A DNA stretch of 64,000 nt. Origin: Lepidurus packardi. Taxonomy: Eukaryota > Arthropoda > Branchiopoda > Notostraca > Triopsidae. Location of the stretch: contig JAKZAN010000006.1 in assembly GCA_023053545.1 (NCBI GenBank), positions 6,577,001-6,641,000 of the forward strand, read 5' to 3'. A program made the position numbers and the translations under genes. A model generated the notes under the pieces. It had not been told where the DNA came from and did not search any database. It saw only the letters and a list, made by a program, of their open reading frames with translations. Below are positions 49,557 through 61,500 of this stretch, in pieces (positions within the stretch are counted from its first letter, which is position 1; each line of letters starts with the position of its first letter).

Positions 49557-51933
49557 TTACGCAACTTGGAAAGTTTCAACCTGACCATCATTAATGGTAA
49601 CAAATTCCTCGGCTTTATTGTCACTTTCAACGGCGTTCTGTTCTTCAGCTAGGTACTGATCCTCGGCTTCTACCATAGCCTCCAAGAGCAAGTTATTGAC
49701 TTCAGGCTTTGCTGAAGCCACTTTTAAGGCTGTCGATAGGCTATCGAGCACGGTGGCCAGTTTCTGAATAGCTTGTGTATTCTCATGAAGAGCTTTTTTG
49801 ACAGTCGCCATCTCAGCTTTCCGTGCTTCACGTTCGTCTTCCATAACCTGGGCAAGAACTTCATCCCAGCGTCCACACAGTCGACAAGTATCCCCGTTAT
49901 CGGATACTTGTTTTCCTGATGAACTTGATTCCAGGACGAATCCTCGGGTTGAAGTCTTTTTGTCGGCTGGTTCTTTTGTCTTGGTAATCGTTATGACAGC
50001 AGCAGGTGAAGTCGACCTGCGTACACTGACAGATTTTTTGCTCACATTGGAAAAAACCTTGGGCGTTTCTGGCGGAGTCCATTCTGGGTCGCTTCCGTGA
50101 TCAAAATCTGCCTCGTCAATGTCATTCGAGTCTCTACGGGGTCGTTTAGCAGACTTGGCTACGGTTTTTGAAGTGTTGGCGGAATTCAAAGGTCTGGACT
50201 CGGAAGGGACCGAGAATGTAACAGGCATGTGCTCTAGCTCTTCAATAACCTCGTCTTTCCCATTAAGCTTCGTCTCGTAAAAGTCGCACAAGCGAGCGAA
50301 GTTTGTTTTCGTCGCTTTGGCATGGTACTTCCGAGCTAAATTCTTCCATCGCCCCAAGGCTTGGTGGCCGTTCATTGGATAGCCTCTCTCACTCATCAAG
50401 GCAGCCACTTTGCGGAAAAGCAAGACAGCCGTACCCCGCTTAAGGATGTACATGTGAGCCCTAGCCAGGCGTACCAACATAAGGGTAGATTTACGATCCC
50501 ATTTTACCAGCTTATCTTCCTCAATTCGCTTTACTTTGCCCAGGGATGTCTTGACTACTAATTGCAAGGGGTTCTTTAACAAATAGTCGGCATTCTCGGT
50601 GAACAATTTGGAAAAGAATTGCTCCATGCTTTCAACAAATTCGGGGCGCTTTTTATCCAAATTTACCCCCGTTTCATGAGTGCGAAAATACTCTTCAAGT
50701 TTCAGGAACTGATCCCGAAGCAGTGGAAAGTTGACTCTGATCTGGAACTCGTTTACTAAGGTTTCCGAGATATTACGAAAGATTTCGTCGCTATCTCCAT
50801 CTCTTCCATTAGTCAATTCCTGAGCATAGGAACGAATCAAAGCCAGAAGCAAACGCTGGGTCCACTCATTTATGGTAGTATCTACGGTTTCATTTTCGCT
50901 ACACTCAGAATCAGACAACTCTTCGGTATTGGCCAGGGTGAGGGTAATATCTGCGTCATCTCTCTTGAGAAACTGCGTGAGTTCTTCGAAGAAATTGGGG
51001 TCCTTTTCCATCCAGTGCTGTCCGCTAGCTTCCCTGAAATCAGAACGCAATTTTTTCCACTTATTGCGAACAATTGGACCGGAAATTTTCTCTCCCACGT
51101 CCAAAGATAGGACTTCAGCAATGTGCTTAAAGAACTGACTTTCATCGCAGCTTCCAATGTCGATCAACGTCTTTTCGCTCTTATAGATGTTAACCATACG
51201 TTCTAAGCTCTCTTTATCCCAGACAAAGTTGTAGCGATACATGGTAGCTGGATGAACGCGTTTTGTCTTGCTGACAAAGCGCTTAGGCGAAAATAAGCCG
51301 GGCTTCTTGGTTTCCAAAATTGGAGCGAGCTCCTCTCCGTACATGAATTTATAGAGGCGATTCTTCTCTTTCGCTTCTCTGTAAGTAAAAGCTAAACGAC
51401 GCCATCGTCTCTGACACTGTAAATGAGTAAACTCAGTGCCATCGCCCAGGTTTTCATTCACGCGGTTGGCCACCAGATTCCAAAAAAAAGTGCTCTTCGG
51501 ATCTTCTGTTTGGGAAAAGGAATGGACGGCTTCTATGAGTACCCTAGTCTTTAGTGGGCCCCACACAATTGTTTGTACGCCTCCAACTTCCCCGGGTCGT
51601 CTTAGCGGTACTAAAGAATACAAGAAAAACATAATTGAGGTATAAAGTGCACATAAACCCAGGCTTACTCTCATCCTGATCAAGTGCATCCTGTGCCGCT
51701 TGCAAGGCAATATCATCCAGACCGTCTCCATCTTGCTCTATAGCTACTAGGCCTTCTCCAACAGCAGTCACGTCTCCATTCTCGTCTCCATCTGCTGTAG
51801 CTCCTTCTGTATCTGAACCAACTTTTCCCGTACAACGGTGGTTCTCTACTGCTTCCAAATCTTCACACAGAAACTGGCAGGCTGAGCATAAGTAAACAAC
51901 AGACTGCCCTGCCTCATCCTTAATGGATGCCAT
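49557..51933 (-). CDS. Nuclear protein with one zinc finger and four Myb/SANT-like (trihelix/MADF-type) repeats
   Basis: Two exons (51669-51933 and 49557-51610) encode 772 aa. Residues about 13-33 form a C2HC zinc finger (YLCSACQFLCEDLEAVENHRC region). Four tandem Myb/SANT-like DNA-binding repeats follow at about 103-175, 217-290, 336-410 and 457-530, each with helix 1 (LIEAVHSF, MVNIYKSE, LIRSYAQE, LVRLARAH) and a closing CQRRWRRL, VRNKWKKL, LRDQFLKL or LGRWKNLA. Repeat 3 has Phe in place of the usual Trp. A basic, Ser/Thr-rich linker includes likely NLSs (KSAKRPRRDS). The C-terminus has a CRLCGRW motif and a coiled coil (ALHENTQAIQKLATVL), followed by an acidic tail. It is probably a chromatin or transcription factor. 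An in-frame ATG at 52044 exists, but a splice-like ctag lies just before ATG 51933. Confidence 0.75.
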
Positions 51934-53340: not shown

Positions 53341-56300
53341 TTAATTCGAATATGGGGAACATGTGGTGTTCACAAAAGCGTTAGTTGTAATAGGTGACAT
53401 TGTCGTACTAGATGCCCAGTCGGGGTAAACCTTGGCGTCGAATATCGGACCACCTAATACTTCCATAAGAATGCAGATGACTACGACGCACACAATGTTC
53501 ATCACGATGCCGGCTTTCATCTGCAAGATGAAAGTATTGTTAAACAAACACTCGGGACCGCAAACTTTGTACGCCTAACGTTACCATGTCTGAAGATTTC
53601 ATCTTGCCAGCAACAAATACGATCGCATTGGGAGGCGTAGCTGCGGGTAACATGAAGGCGTACGAACAGGTGACAGTGGCTGGCACCATTAAGTATATCG
53701 GATTGACTTGAATGGCCTCTGACTATAAATCAAGTTAAGTTCTTAATTTGTTCTAAAATAGTTAATTACCATTTTCGCTAAGACTGGAAGCAGGATATTA
53801 GCAGTAGCAGTGTTAGACGCTACTTCGGTGACGGCCGCAGTCATAACACATACTATAAATATGATAGCGAAGGGAGGCAGGACATCTAGGGCAACGAGCT
53901 GGTTTCCTAGCCAGGTTGATAAGCCCGACTTATTACAAGCGTCAGCCATGGCAAAGCCACCACCTTAGAACGCGTTCTTTCAATATACATTGCTAAATGG
54001 TTACAAATTACCGAGAAGAAGTATAATTCCCCAAGGCATACGTTCTTGAACAAAAGCCCACGTCAACAACGCAGGGCCACTTTTGTGAGGACTAGGATCT
54101 AAAAACGTAAGCGCATTAATGCCTGCGCACATTTTGTAAGGCAAAGTTAACGAACCATCTTTTGAACGGAACCACCAAAAATCCAGTTTAGCTGGAAGCA
54201 TAAACATGATTACCACTATAAACATAGCAGCAGTGGCATCGTCAATCTCACTTCAAAAGAAAAGGGCAAATACAGTTTACAGTACTTTTCACTATAATTT
54301 TGGAACGGCTTACACTGCAGGGAAAAGATCGGCCCAACCCGGGATAAATTGCGGTTCGCGAAAAAACCACAATGCAACCAAGATAAGAAATAAAGTCAGC
54401 GTGGCCCCTTCATGAAAGTGAATAGGACCCAATTCCGCGTATTTTTGGCGGATCATAGTTTTTACTTCTGCTCCACGATCATGTTTTTCCCTATCGTATA
54501 AAATACATTATAAAATCAAAATGTATTTGGATTCTTACTCTTTGAAACCGAGGAACAACACCTGTAGCCAGATCCAGGCTAGAAACGTGCAGATAAGCAT
54601 ACCGGGTACATTAAATGCCATCCATGTGGCAAAATTGAAGTTTGTATTACTTCCGTATGACCTACTCATTATATTTTAGAATTGGTTTAAAGAACTATCG
54701 CATTAGGAAGAAATGTTAATTGTACGGAGAGAAAGCTCACTCTTCAAAGATGCCTTGCAAGGCGAGTTGGGGCCCCGAACCTACTAGTGTGCCGGTACCA
54801 CCTAGGTTAGAAGCGTATGCGACAGACAGGAACATAGTTTTGCGAATAGTGAAAGTATCAGGCTCTTTTCCACTGCACATCATCATGCCCCTTCCATGCA
54901 TGATTCTATGATAAACCGCGCAAGCTGTAATTAGATTTCGGCATTTTTGCAGTTAATAACAAATTATTAGTTAAGCATCTTTCATGGCAATTATAATATT
55001 AAGCTTCAGCAGGCAATTTTTCAGTTAGAGTGGTTATTATAGCCCAGCATTCGAATGTTAGAATGTGACCAGCTTCGACACCTAAAATGCTAACCTGAAT
55101 ATTCCTTTAAACGCCAAATTGGGACCAGTTCCTGTAACACTTCCGGTGCCCCCTAAATTCGCAGAATAGGCCAGAGCCAGCAACATACATTTACGGATGT
55201 TTCTGGGGTCGTTACTTGAATGGTTTAAAATTGGGTTACGGAACACAAAACTAATCGTTTCAGTTACTTACGATTTTTTTTCAACGACATCAGGTTCCGT
55301 AAGTATGGTTTTCATCGTAGTTGGGTTTACGGCATTGTTTTCGTTTTCTTTCTCTTTGAGGTCATCGAGTATCATGACAGAAGTTCGTTCTCTACTGCCC
55401 TTCCTGGTAGAATTTTTAACGTCAAATTCCACGTCAACTAGTGAATTCTCACTTCCACTTTCTGCGTCCTACACTTGATGAAAGGGTGAATAAATAATGT
55501 GCAAATTGTTTTCCTTTTTGTGTCACCTTGTAGAGCTCGTTAACAACTCCATCAACGATGGGTACCATCATAGCAGTGGCTATACAGAAGAATTAGATAC
55601 TAATGTTTGCGAAAATAGAACTTAACACTTACCCGCAGTGTTATTAATCCACATGGATAGAAACATAGTGTTTATCATGAAACCGAGCATGAGCCTGCAA
55701 TTCATACGATGGTTAAGATAATGTTTTATAAGACTTCAGTGGTTTATACCATCTTGGAGTGGCTCCGACTAACATGAGGACGCGCAAAGAAATACGCCTA
55801 TGCAGATTGCAGTTTTCAATCGCTAATGCTACCATTAGACTTCCCATGAACATCATGACGGTCTCTTTGAGGTATGACATACAAACTGCATTTGTACCCA
55901 AGACTCCCAGTAAAGGAAAAAGAACTACGGGCAAAAGGCTTGTTATGGCTAAAGGCAATGCTTCCGTCATCCAATACAGGGCCATTAGCAAGACGACGAA
56001 CCCACATCGAGACTCCTAGAGATGAAACGGCGCAGTAAAGTAAAGTAAACCATTAGAATCAGCATACAATGAACTGAATCAGCATACAACATTCGGTACG
56101 GACACTCCTATAACGACGCTCAGGTCAGGTTCAACATCGTTTGCTACTCTTCTTCGAATAAACTTAAAATTAATTTATGTGCACTATGAGAAAAGCACGG
56201 AAGCCCTGCTGAGGCATATGTACCAAAAATGCACGTAATAGGATGTATGTACCCATGATTTAGGTTCGGGGGGTGGGTCAGGGCCACACCCAGAAATTTG

Positions 56301-57305
56301 GTTCTGGGTGTCGGGAAAAGTATTGTAAAAAACATTGCTTATATGTTTAACCTGACTATATCGTATGATATCGATTTCTGCTGCCTTTTTTCTTTTACAC
56401 TGACGTAGAGTTTCTGACATCGAAAAGAGCCCCTCCACGCGTATTGAGGAAGTATCCTTTAAGTATCCTTTCAGCTGTGTCCTTTGAGTTGTTAAACAAT
56501 CAGCAACTCTCCTTTAACCTTGGACAAGTATGGTCTATTACTGTCAGGACTTATTAACTCTCTCTCTCTCTCACACACACGGGAGTAGTATGTGTGGATA
56601 TCGCTACGGAGAAAAAAAATTTCGGGAGGGGGGGGGGGCACCCCCTGGGTACGGGCCTGTGTATGATGCACCTTCTCTGTCAGAATTCTAGTACATACGT
56701 GTCAAATAAGATTAGATTCGGTTTTGAGCATTCCTAGGCCTGGAATCGTCTTGAGCATACATTTTCACGAGAACCTTAAAGATGAATACATGCTGGCCTA
56801 CTTTGGTCTTTGAAAATTATCAAAGAAACAGCAACCGAAAAACATATACGTCCCTAAAGACATACGCAAATATAAACCTGTTTTGTCGGTTTCTCCCATT
56901 GGGAAATTTGGGATTGGGAAATCCAAATACCAGAGTACAGCTTACATAACCTGTGCTGTCCAGACGAGAATCACACAGAGCGTAAAGTATCGCGTTACAT
57001 GTTAACCTATTCCCTTGACCTCCGATAGGTTACTGGTAAAACCCTGCACTTATGATTACGGAACGATAAGCCACCGTTTTGTCTAAAGGGAAAAAACCTG
57101 TTCTGTTTACACCGTTCCGTCTAAGGGGAAAAGGCCAGACATACAAAATACATCAAAATTAAAAACAGCCCAAATAAACAGCCGAGTGACTTACCACTGT
57201 TCCTGCTACGATCGGAATTGGGGCCAAGGCAAGCGGAATCACAATTACAATAATGCCCCGCCAGTACGGCAAAACGTTAACTTTGATATCCTTAATTAAA
57301 CCCAT
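53341..57305 (-). CDS. SLC13 family Na+/di- or tricarboxylate transporter (INDY-like)
   Basis: SLC13 proteins import citrate and dicarboxylates with Na+ across the plasma membrane. Constitutive minus-strand exons are 57195-57305, 55750-56015, 55633-55694, 55527-55579, 55272-55468, 54539-54664, 54314-54490, 54012-54250, 53770-53963, 53585-53722 and 53341-53520. Between 55272 and 54664 the mRNA takes one of two alternative exons (55095-55202 or 54741-54872), giving 616 or 624 aa. Family signatures include MALYWMTEALPLAITSLLPV, MFMGSLMVALAIE, FMINTMFLSMWINNTA, the first Na+/substrate hairpin in the alternative exon, and TEVASNTATANILLP, the second SNT motif. An acidic cytosolic loop lies at 55272-55468. 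A C-terminal N-glycosylation site (NTTC) follows the last helix. The first intron is 1.18 kb, unusually long here. Confidence 0.93.
54741..54872 (-). other. SLC13 alternative exon B (44 codons)
   Basis: This phase-2 to phase-2 exon encodes GKEPDTFTIRKTMFLSVAYA and then SNLGGTGTLVGSGPQLALQG. It is a paralogue of exon 55095-55202 with nine extra N-terminal residues. It has its own acceptor (gtgcag) and donor (GTGAGC). Confidence 0.85.
55095..55202 (-). other. SLC13 alternative exon A (36 codons)
   Basis: This phase-2 to phase-2 exon encodes NIRKCMLLALAYSANLGGTG and then SVTGTGPNLAFKGIFR, the first substrate and Na+ binding hairpin. Acceptor cccag and donor GTTAGC are present. Inclusion of both A and B would duplicate the hairpin, so they are expected to be mutually exclusive. 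Confidence 0.85.
56016..57194 (-). other. First intron of the SLC13 gene with low-complexity and repeat-like sequence
   Basis: No exon was found inside. It contains a (CT)n(CA)n microsatellite (about 56558-56581), poly-G tracts near 56265 and 56630, and a short tandem repeat around 57075-57140 (ccgtttygtctaargggaaaa). Confidence 0.5.
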
Positions 57306-58523: not shown

Positions 58524-61500
58524 CTATGGTTGAGATATGACAGTATGGCATAAAATGTGCCAATGTTCATGCGTTTTGTCTGGAAATTTCATGGCATCGA
58601 GCCACTGCTTCAAACGTTCGCCCTTTGACTTTGAACCGAGTTGCACGCAACCTGCAAATGTAATACATTTACATTTCAAATTAAGTTGAATGATTGCAAG
58701 TTAAACCAACCAATATAATCGTTGCTGCGACCAAAGTCTTTGTCCCATACTGTCAATTCCAGCCATTGTTTAGGTAAGTCCGCGCGTCTAACGTCAAACA
58801 CGAATTGTTCGTTAAATTCCGGAGCCAAAGTTTTCCATTTCACGCAAGTTTTCTGACGACGACGATTGTGCGAATCCGGTTTGAGCTGGCTAAAAGTCAA
58901 TGTAGTCAAACTTGTTAATAAATGCGTTTTTCAATATAAGTACTTCAGAAATAAACGCTTTAAACTCACACTTTGACATACGGGTCCGAGAAACCGTTGG
59001 AATCCATGGGCGGCAAGTCTTTACACCGAATTACTCCAACAATTAACACATTCTTGGACGTCGAATAACTCAAAGTGACTAGGATTTCACCTCGGAAAAA
59101 TCCCATGTCAACAATATCACGACTGACCTTTAATTGCAAAAAAAAAAAAAACAAGTTAGAAAATTAAACCAAAAATTCCATCCATAAATTTTACTAGTAA
59201 AGGTTTCTCCAAAAACATTTGAAAATGCTTCGTCTGATTAGGTCGCAGTTTGTTCAAGGTAACACGAGTTTCTCCCATAGGCTCTGACCCAAAACGGTCT
59301 TCATCTTCACGGTTCCAAATAAAGAATCCAAATTCATTAAGAAAAGGCTTCGAAAGTTAATGGTACTTTTACATACCGGCTATAACTAATCTCAAACTTT
59401 TCCGGGCCACGTCATTATCACTAACTCCGTAGTAAGTAATGGTTTCGTTGAACTCGGGGCTCAGGGTCTTGTGCACAGTTGTTGTCCGCAACCGAGTCTC
59501 CTGTTGAAACGTTACGAGTTTTTAACAACAAAGCCTTAGGAAAGGAAATTAAGTGACAGGCTTTACCTTGTTGCCAGCAACACCCAACTCCAAAATACAG
59601 TAGGGGTCCGATAATCCATCAATATCCATTCCTCTCAACCTCTGCGCATAGAAAAAGCCTCATGTTTTATATCAGTACCCCCAATCTAATCTGCCTTTTA
59701 CCCTCGCCCTCAAGATGGTGCAGTTCAACGCTTGCACGGCGGCATCGTAGAGCAAGGAAAATTCGATCATACCCAGGGAAGCTATGAAACATGAAAAATG
59801 GATCATTCTGTAGCAATAGATGCTCATAAAGCGTCTTTCATACCATCTTGTTGCGGTGTTCCATGGTCTTCTTCACTACTTTGTCGCGAAGAAGCCGGCG
59901 ACACTTCCATAGATCGTATTGACGGTGAAGGGCTTTTATCGCCACCTGGGCCTGGTGAGGGAGATAAGCTGGGCGTAGATTCACGCTTCCTGCTATGAGA
60001 AATGGATGAGAAAGAAAAAGGATATTACAAAAGATATGGCGTGATATGTCACGCTCAACATGTAAAGAGCTAAATCATGCGTTTGAACGCCTTTTGCCCA
60101 AGCCAAACTCGAAATCTTGCTCTCCAGACCACACAATTGGTTTTCGCATTCAACCTAATTCTGCTTTGTATGCTTGAAGCTGGATTGCCTTTTTCATTTC
60201 AGAAGGAAGGGACAGAAAAATGCAAAAAAAAATCTCTTGCTGATACTTTACTCTTATGCTAAACAAAGCTTGGGAGAAACTTACGAATGTTGAGAGACGC
60301 TGCCTTGTTAAGAACAATGGTGAAAGAAAAAGAACATAAAATAGAACGAAAAAAAGTTCTTGGCAAGTAACCACTGGAAATTTCTTACCCCCAATTAGCA
60401 ATCCGCAAAGTCCGCATCCCTTCCGTTGCTTTGGAGTCTTCAGTTGCTGAATCAGTGGCTATGCTCGACTCTCGGCGTGTCAAAAAGCCACGGTAACGCG
60501 AAACATGGTTGTTAGGGCTCGTGTTGTTGTTGCTCGTTGTGGTATTAGCCGTAGTTTCAATCGGAGACCGGAAATCCTAACCGTTACATAAAAGATGTAA
60601 TTAAAAGGAATTGTCCAGGTCCCAGAAACAAGGACGAAAGAGCTCCACGAGTTCTGCAATCTAAACTTACGGCGAAAGCTTTAGAGGACCATGTGCTTCT
60701 TCGTGAAGGAGCTTCTAAAGTATCGCTTGAAGGCGGTCGGCTTTTAGTCACAGCAGCAGGCTTTTCGGAATCCGAAGGATCTTCGCCAAAAACGCTTTCA
60801 TTCGTCGACTGTGACTCTAAACGACGGGGTGATGATGCGGCTGCTGATTTTGCATCTGCGTCGGACAAACTGCTCTGCGGACTTGGAGATAAACTCCCCA
60901 GTCTGGGCCTGTATAACAATAGACCACGGAAGGGCAGAGATGATTAACCATGCCGGCGAATTATTAATCACCAGCATAAAAAAACACTTCTCCTTGTTTT
61001 TCTCTGTTTTCCAGATTTACTTTGCTATGATATACAAAACTTACTTGGGACATAATCCCTGCTCTTCTTTGTACGCCGGAGCAGACCAGATTCGTACGCG
61101 ACCGAAACTTCGTTTGTCTTCATCCGAACTTGAGTCCTCTTGCTCAGACGGCGGACCTTAATGAAGCAATGGATAAGTTTCACGTTCACGCTCTTGTAAA
61201 TTGCAGCCTTTGCCTCCCCATACCCGACAACAACAACAAAAAGTCAAAGACCCGTTTCCCCCTTAAAAGTAAATATTTGTAGAAATATATATGCATCTAC
61301 CTGACGCAGCACTTTTAGCCCAACCAGCGCTCACTGTAGAAGATGGAAGCAAACGTCGATTCGGGTACTTGCAAGACCCTTGAGGTTTTTTCTCCGGCAA
61401 AACATATCTTGGTAAGCTCTGCAGGCCACCGTAGAAACAAAGAGGAGGGGAAAAAAATAAAAATGGAAACATCATATAAGCCTCAATCTCTCAGGACTGA

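What the first reader, a model, noticed from the sequence alone, without database searches (positions are those of the whole stretch)
54741..55202. SLC13 transporter with mutually exclusive exons swapping the substrate and Na+ binding hairpin
Two adjacent exons, both phase 2 to phase 2 and both multiples of three, encode homologous but distinct versions of the first binding hairpin: SANLGGTGSVTGTGPN and ASNLGGTGTLVGSGPQ. Asn at the last position becomes Gln and Thr becomes Val or Ser. One gene could thus make two transporters with different substrate or cation preference. I know of no description of this for INDY-type transporters.
Basis: partly seen in the sequence, partly recalled or inferred. 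Interest (0 to 1): 0.8.

Follow-up and report, generated by a model that had tools for sequence, protein, structure and literature searches.

The report
Swappable substrate-binding exon in crustacean transporter
A crustacean gene for a citrate-type membrane transporter carries two alternative versions of the exon that builds its substrate-binding loop, and relatives from water fleas to shrimps carry the same kind of swap, so one gene probably makes transporters with differently tuned binding sites.

Summary
A complete SLC13 (DASS) gene lies on the minus strand (57305-53341). Between constant exons ending at 55272 and starting at 54661 sit two homologous exons, A (55214 or 55202 to 55095) and B (54872-54741), same phase, GT-AG borders; either alone keeps the frame (619 or 623 aa). 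They encode helix 5a, loop 5 and helix 5b, not a hairpin. A and B share 20 of 34 residues but only 3 of 12 fourfold third bases, so the duplication is old. In 16 crustacean and springtail species annotated proteins differ at this slot or hold tandem copies. Exon B has the motif of a branchiopod class that replaces a near-invariant Asn by Gln (22 of 124 arthropod rows, 0 of 80 prokaryotic). In VcINDY this Asn holds a buried water, not Na+ (PMC13394699), so I favour tuning of substrate handling, turnover or stability over a cation switch. Not shown: exclusive use in mRNA, any transport difference, and that the window's pair is orthologous to Daphnia's and Artemia's. Ten open-access searches gave no description.

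The parts
57195..57305 (-). constant exon 1, start codon, TM1
   Evidence: matches D. magna N-terminus (E 9.6e-9)
55750..56015 (-). constant exon 2
   Evidence: PF00939 match
55633..55694 (-). constant exon 3, HPin motif (INNT where most relatives have ISNT)
55527..55579 (-). constant exon 4
55272..55468 (-). constant exon 5, cytoplasmic linker; phase-2 donor shared by both alternatives
55095..55214 (-). alternative exon A (Asn type, TGTGPN), TM5a-L5ab-TM5b; may start at 55202
54741..54872 (-). alternative exon B (Gln type, VGSGPQ), TM5a-L5ab-TM5b
54539..54661 (-). constant exon after the slot; NAGNAG acceptor (54661 or 54664)
   Evidence: letters
54314..54490 (-). constant exon
54012..54250 (-). 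constant exon
53770..53963 (-). constant exon, HPout motif (ASNT)
53585..53722 (-). constant exon, L10ab motif (ATPPN)
53341..53520 (-). last constant exon and stop codon

Best explanation
One SLC13/DASS transporter gene of a branchiopod-like crustacean holds two tandem, homologous, in-phase exons for TM5a-L5ab-TM5b. Splicing most likely includes one of them per mRNA, so the gene makes two transporters identical except in this element. Shown: gene structure, homology, intact frames and splice signals, and alternative or tandem use of the same slot in annotated relatives. Inferred: exclusive inclusion here, and the effect. Both forms keep the Gly whose carbonyl binds Na1. Form B changes the substrate-contacting Thr to Ser, and the Asn that pins a buried water between the two halves of the moving domain to Gln. 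The most likely effect is a change of substrate affinity or range, turnover, or domain stability, with the Na1 site itself unchanged.
For: Gene and exon structure. A and B are old copies: 20 of 34 residues and 62 of 102 bases equal over the core, 3 of 12 fourfold third bases equal. Of 17 same-species protein sets compared, 14 contain a pair that differs at this slot alone or together with the first exon, a truncated end or a few residues; two further species have single models with tandem copies, three in Cyprideis and two in Folsomia. D. pulex has models with both, Asn only, Gln only and neither, and in the double model the Asn type comes first as in the window. Contigs of at most 2,401 nt carry full frames with one Gln exon (P0008, 12 contigs), which looks like spliced mRNA (inference). 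AlphaFold models of both D. magna forms are alike in confidence. Gln at the N203 position occurs in 22 of 124 arthropod rows and 0 of 80 prokaryotic rows.
Against: No transcripts of this organism were available. Most relatives' isoforms are automatic gene models, and some include both exons or neither (D. pulex X2 and X7, M. rosenbergii X9 and X10, Homarus X2). Double inclusion stays in frame, so nothing removes it by frame loss. Intron pairing that could enforce exclusion is at chance level (86, 195 and 185 of 200 shuffles as good). The class link between window and relatives rests on the motif: over 37 residues identities hardly differ (A to D. magna Asn 21, B to it 19; B to D. magna Gln 22, A to it 20), the Artemia Gln block is closer to A (21) than to B (18), and tblastn scores the D. 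magna Asn segment higher on B (45.1 bits) than on A (34.3 bits).
Confidence: 0.68

Rival explanations
1. The two exons switch the coupling ion or the substrate class: for example Na+-coupled carboxylate transport in one form, and H+-coupled or sulfate transport in the other.
For: The block forms one wall of the substrate and Na1 sites (PMC10980263 section 7). Drosophila INDY uses H+ although Na+ residues are conserved, which its authors ascribe to shifted loops including TM5a-b (PMC11782487 section 12). NaS1 differs from the carboxylate transporters at the next loop-5 residue (Ser260), and 16 of 22 Gln rows have Ser there (IGSSPQ).
Against: Both exons keep the Na1 Gly; N203 changes left Na+ coupling intact in VcINDY (PMC13394699 section 7); the window's exon B has Gly, not Ser, at the NaS1-like position.
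Confidence: 0.15
2. Both exons are used but not exclusively: an important product contains both copies, or the block is skipped, and the pair serves regulation (for example a dominant-negative subunit of the dimer) more than binding-site choice.
For: Double and skipped forms stay in frame; double or skipped models are annotated in D. pulex, M. rosenbergii, Homarus, Artemia (skip), Cyprideis and Folsomia.
Against: A second TM5a-TM5b would be expected to disturb the known fold (inference); single-exon forms are annotated in 14 of 17 compared sets.
Confidence: 0.1
3. One of the two exons is a dead or rarely used copy and the gene makes in practice one transporter.
For: No transcripts of this organism were available; exon B's acceptor has a purine-rich upstream stretch (letters, by eye).
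Against: Both have intact frames and splice sites although third bases are saturated (3 of 12 equal); the same slot is alternative in many relatives.
Confidence: 0.07

Closest known systems
SLC13 / DASS transporters with solved structures (NaCT, NaDC1, NaDC3, NaS1, Drosophila INDY, VcINDY)
   Same: Whole-length sequence match (best E about 1e-134 to 1e-121 for the human and fly proteins), same element order, HPout SNT, L10ab ATPPN and Na1 Gly; family model TIGR00785 passed by form A.
   Different: Two alternative TM5a-L5ab-TM5b exons in one gene; form B has Gln where 98 of 124 arthropod and 77 of 80 prokaryotic rows have Asn; HPin reads NNT instead of SNT.
SLC13 genes of decapods, an ostracod and a springtail with alternative or tandem blocks at the same slot (Penaeus, Macrobrachium, Palaemon, Homarus, Procambarus, Cherax, Scylla; Cyprideis; Folsomia)
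   Same: The same slot is alternative or tandem.
   Different: Some decapod blocks include more of the linker; their copies seen here are all Asn type; P. japonicus shows four different blocks.
Branchiopod SLC13 genes with an Asn and a Gln block (Daphnia magna, carinata, pulex, pulicaria; Artemia franciscana)
   Same: Same slot, one Asn-type and one Gln-type block; Asn type first in the D. pulex double model.
   Different: Daphnia Asn blocks read IGSGTN, not TGTGPN; Gln blocks are mostly IGSSPQ, the window's is VGSGPQ; orthology of the blocks is not proved by the exon tree.
Mutually exclusive exons in other transporters (SLC25A3, SLC39A14)
   Same: Homologous neighbouring exons, one per mRNA, named in PMC5740500 (passages).
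   Different: Other families; PMC9741552 (passages) says that in human genes ligand-binding residues inside such exons are almost always conserved, whereas here a substrate-contacting residue and a near-invariant Asn differ.

Membership tests
SLC13 / DASS | Match to the curated family models | tested here: met
   PF00939 over cut-off exon by exon (109.5 and 47.6 bits, cut-off 27); TIGR00785 243.4 bits, cut-off 198.6, form A
SLC13 / DASS | Two SNT motifs (HPin, HPout) | tested here: inconclusive
   HPout SNT present; HPin reads NNT. 117 of 124 arthropod rows have Ser there, 4 have Asn, 1 Cys, 2 gaps
SLC13 / DASS | Loop-5 Gly for Na1 and loop-10 ATPPN | tested here: met
   Gly kept in both exons; ATPPN in constant exon; numbering by alignment to NaDC1
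SLC13 / DASS | Asn at the VcINDY N203 position | tested here: inconclusive
   Met by form A, not by form B (Gln). 98 Asn, 22 Gln, 4 gaps of 124 arthropod rows; 77 Asn, 2 Thr, 1 Lys of 80 prokaryotic rows
SLC13 / DASS | Transport of di- or tricarboxylates or sulfate | not testable with these tools
   needs an uptake assay
Mutually exclusive exons | Neighbouring homologous exons, same phase, each alone in frame | tested here: met
Mutually exclusive exons | Single-exon forms of one gene in relatives | tested here: met
   14 of 17 same-species sets; annotated models, mostly automatic
Mutually exclusive exons | Exactly one exon per mRNA | not testable with these tools
   no RNA reads; double and skipped models exist in relatives
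Mutually exclusive exons | A recognised enforcing mechanism (intron pairing, too short an intron, frame loss on double inclusion) | tested here: not met
   Pairing at chance level (86, 195, 185 of 200 shuffles); 222-nt middle intron; double inclusion in frame. A regulator protein was not tested. So 'mutually exclusive' stays an inference

The most novel reading that the evidence does not exclude
An ancient Asn/Gln exon pair, present before the living branchiopods split, lets one SLC13 gene swap the buried-water linchpin and a substrate contact of its elevator domain. Exon arrays at the same slot in decapods, an ostracod and a springtail make this helix a repeated site of transporter diversification by splicing across Pancrustacea, giving the animals tissue- or salinity-specific anion transporters from one gene.
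Probability: 0.35. Interest if true: 0.78.

Novelty: new variant of a known kind. Interest (0 to 1): 0.63.

Why it matters
SLC13 transporters import citrate and related acids and influence metabolism and fly lifespan (abstracts of PMC11782487 and PMC8537002 as listed). A natural exon swap in one wall of the binding site, annotated in model crustaceans such as Daphnia and Artemia, is a ready experiment on what loop 5 decides: substrate range, coupling or stability. The recurring Gln at a position called completely invariant (PMC13394699 section 6) tests the buried-water idea directly. It would also place SLC13 among the transporters diversified by tandem exons, with changes at the binding site itself, which PMC9741552 (passages) describes as unusual in human genes.

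Tried and rejected
Exon tree. With the Asn/Gln column included (59 rows), the 17 Gln rows form one side of a branch (support 81/76), but that column is the trait itself. Without it (60 rows, 36 columns) they do not: 3 changes in the best tree; holding the 18 Gln rows together gives p-AU 0.074. Window A+B as one clade is not rejected (p-AU 0.09); D. magna Asn+Gln as one clade is (7e-8). So the exon alone cannot date the window's pair. I chose the rows: 54 of 130 proteins, some with several copies, plus window A and B.

Constant-part tree: window plus 34 of 130 proteins chosen by me, quick method, linker and alternative block left out. The window gene joins three Artemia genes (SH-aLRT 89) inside a 15-row set (96) of the window, 8 named Daphnia or Artemia rows and 6 unnamed rows. 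This is the only basis for 'branchiopod-like'; the species was not identified.

A third exon copy or second first exon: none stood out. RNA pairing between introns: chance level (repeats listed). One search counted only segments with Asn or Gln by its own pattern and is not used as a frequency; one search has no such limit but leaves out 6 of 130 proteins (760 aa or longer), and one of its 4 gaps (P0062) is an alignment fault, since that protein has Asn.

Not counted as swaps: D. sinensis, Oratosquilla and the Cyprideis pair compare different genes; P0001, P0002, P0025, P0028 and P0068 hold copies 335-536 residues apart, probably joined neighbouring genes. The Procambarus pair includes a model marked low quality.

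Literature: ten searches, eight aimed at this question, two general. I saw listings, and passages of PMC9741552, PMC5740500, PMC7954323 and PMC8016896; PMC1431701, which holds both terms, was not opened. Supplementary tables and subscription journals were not seen.

Full report
What is there. The minus strand of the window from 57305 to 53341 holds a complete SLC13 (DASS) gene: eleven constant exons plus two homologous exons in one slot (13 exons in the model). All introns are GT-AG. The constant exon ending at 55272 stops after two bases of a codon. A alone gives 619 aa, B alone 623, both 663, neither 579, all open to one stop. The introns of the slot measure 57, 222 and 79 nt; the first intron of the gene 1,179 nt; the other eight 47-64 nt.

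More than chance. Exon B with its next exon, searched against the 108.6-Mb assembly, matched only this gene, exon A included (E 2.9e-8). A and B share 20 of 34 residues and 62 of 102 bases over the core, but only 3 of 12 third bases at shared fourfold codons, so the copies are old and not a doubling by the assembler. PF00939 matched only this gene in the assembly (4 candidates scored, a lower bound by the tool's own warning).

Which part is swapped. Alignments to solved structures and AlphaFold models of the two D. magna forms put the block on TM5a, loop L5ab and TM5b. In the Gln form the helices run 234-258 and 267-280, in the Asn form 230-252 and 261-274, with similar confidence. The best structural matches of the Gln model are NaDC3, NaS1, NaCT and Drosophila INDY. 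In NaDC1, loop 5 gives a carbonyl of Gly239 to Na1 and the side chain of Thr240 to citrate (PMC10980263, section 7). By alignment (the chain is offset by 13 from the paper's numbers), positions 238-243 read T-G-T-G-P-N in exon A and V-G-S-G-P-Q in exon B. The Na1 Gly stays, the substrate-contacting Thr becomes Ser (as VcINDY S200), and the Asn at the start of TM5b becomes Gln.

That Asn is VcINDY N203. [quoted passage not shown] N203A and N203H transport, N203L and N203K do not, and Na+ coupling is unchanged. In my sample it was Asn in 98, Gln in 22 and a gap in 4 of 124 arthropod rows (6 of 130 proteins left out for length), and Asn in 77, Thr in 2 and Lys in 1 of 80 prokaryotic rows. Of the 22 Gln rows 14 have a named source, 12 Daphnia and 2 Artemia; 8 are unnamed. 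Their motifs were IGSSPQ 16, IGSGPQ 3, IGSTPQ 2, TGAGPQ 1. The window's VGSGPQ fits this class, and its TGTGPN is the commonest Asn motif (44 of 98).

Relatives show that the slot is alternative. The first protein search listed 120 of 1,070 hits, the second 33, the third 16. I compared proteins of the same species in 17 sets. In 14 sets at least one pair differs by this block alone, or by it plus the first exon, a truncated end or a few residues: D. magna, carinata, pulex and pulicaria, Artemia franciscana, Penaeus japonicus (four different blocks) and indicus, Macrobrachium rosenbergii and nipponense, Palaemon carinicauda, Homarus, Procambarus clarkii, Cherax and Scylla. The other three sets (D. 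sinensis, Oratosquilla, Cyprideis) compare different genes. Single models with tandem copies add Cyprideis (three) and Folsomia (two), and occur also in D. pulex, M. rosenbergii and Homarus. That makes 16 species: five branchiopods, nine decapods, one ostracod, one collembolan. The two D. magna proteins come from different assemblies and differ in exactly one block. In the D. pulex double model the Asn type comes first and the Gln type second, as in the window. Most of these are automatic annotations. Contigs of at most 2,401 nt that carry a full open frame with one Gln exon (P0008, 12 contigs) look like spliced transcripts, which is an inference.

Age, with the evidence on both sides. The constant part places the window gene with the Artemia genes, inside a set that also holds the Daphnia genes. 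Both lines have an Asn/Gln pair, and Gln was not seen in any named protein outside Daphnia and Artemia, so one origin before the branchiopods split is a simple account. Against it: without the Asn/Gln column the Gln rows are not one clade in the best tree (p-AU 0.074 when held together), a private duplication in the window's lineage is not rejected (p-AU 0.09), over 37 residues the Artemia Gln block is nearer to exon A (21) than to exon B (18), and the D. magna Asn segment scores higher on exon B (45.1 bits) than on A (34.3 bits). In the second case the Gln in the window would have arisen in parallel, itself remarkable.

How it probably works. One exon is chosen per mRNA; the products are two transporters that differ in one wall of the binding site. 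The best-supported expectation is tuning of substrate affinity or range, turnover or domain stability. A cation switch is less likely, since the Na1 Gly and the HPin Asn are kept and N203 is not a Na+ ligand in VcINDY. It is not excluded: Drosophila INDY uses H+ although the Na+ residues are conserved, which its authors ascribe to the placement of loops including TM5a-b (PMC11782487, section 12). What enforces exclusion is unknown: intron pairing is at chance level (86, 195 and 185 of 200 shuffles as good), the middle intron is 222 nt, and double inclusion stays in frame.

Known or new. Mutually exclusive exons are well known, also in transporters (SLC25A3, SLC39A14; PMC5740500, passages). PMC9741552 (passages) reports that in human genes ligand-binding residues inside such exons are almost always conserved. 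Ten open-access searches gave no text on SLC13 or INDY with alternative TM5 exons; the passages of PMC8016896 mention the D. magna INDY gene only for its expression. The alternative models themselves are already in public databases. I file it as a new variant of a known kind.

Noticed in passing
window 55640-55645 (constant exon 3): HPin motif reads Asn-Asn-Thr instead of Ser-Asn-Thr in both isoforms; 117 of 124 arthropod rows have Ser at this place and 4, all unnamed, have Asn. Ser140Ala lowers NaDC1 transport (PMC10980263 section 7).
   Followed up: partly
window 53341-57305, whole assembly: This gene is the only PF00939 match found in the assembly, while Artemia and Daphnia have several genes of the family.
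   Followed up: partly
proteins P0029/P0035, P0039/P0044, P0031/P0036, P0066/P0067: Shrimp and lobster isoforms also differ in the first exon (TM1 region), so their SLC13 genes seem to combine alternative starts with alternative TM5 blocks.
   Followed up: no
protein P0119 (Cyprideis torosa) and P0121 (Folsomia candida): Gene models that join three and two tandem TM5 blocks in one protein, probably exon arrays annotated as if all were included.
   Followed up: partly
proteins P0001, P0002, P0025, P0028, P0068: Myriapod and wasp models of 910-1,088 aa hold two copies 335-536 residues apart, probably neighbouring transporter genes joined by annotation.
   Followed up: no
window 49557-51737 (-): Open frame of 726 aa with three Myb/SANT-like DNA-binding stretches (PF13837), downstream of the transporter.
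   Followed up: no
window 58676-59163 (-): Exons of a C2-domain protein upstream of the transporter (PF00168).
   Followed up: no
window 54661-54667 (-): NAGNAG tandem acceptor after the alternative slot, which could add one residue to either isoform.
   Followed up: no
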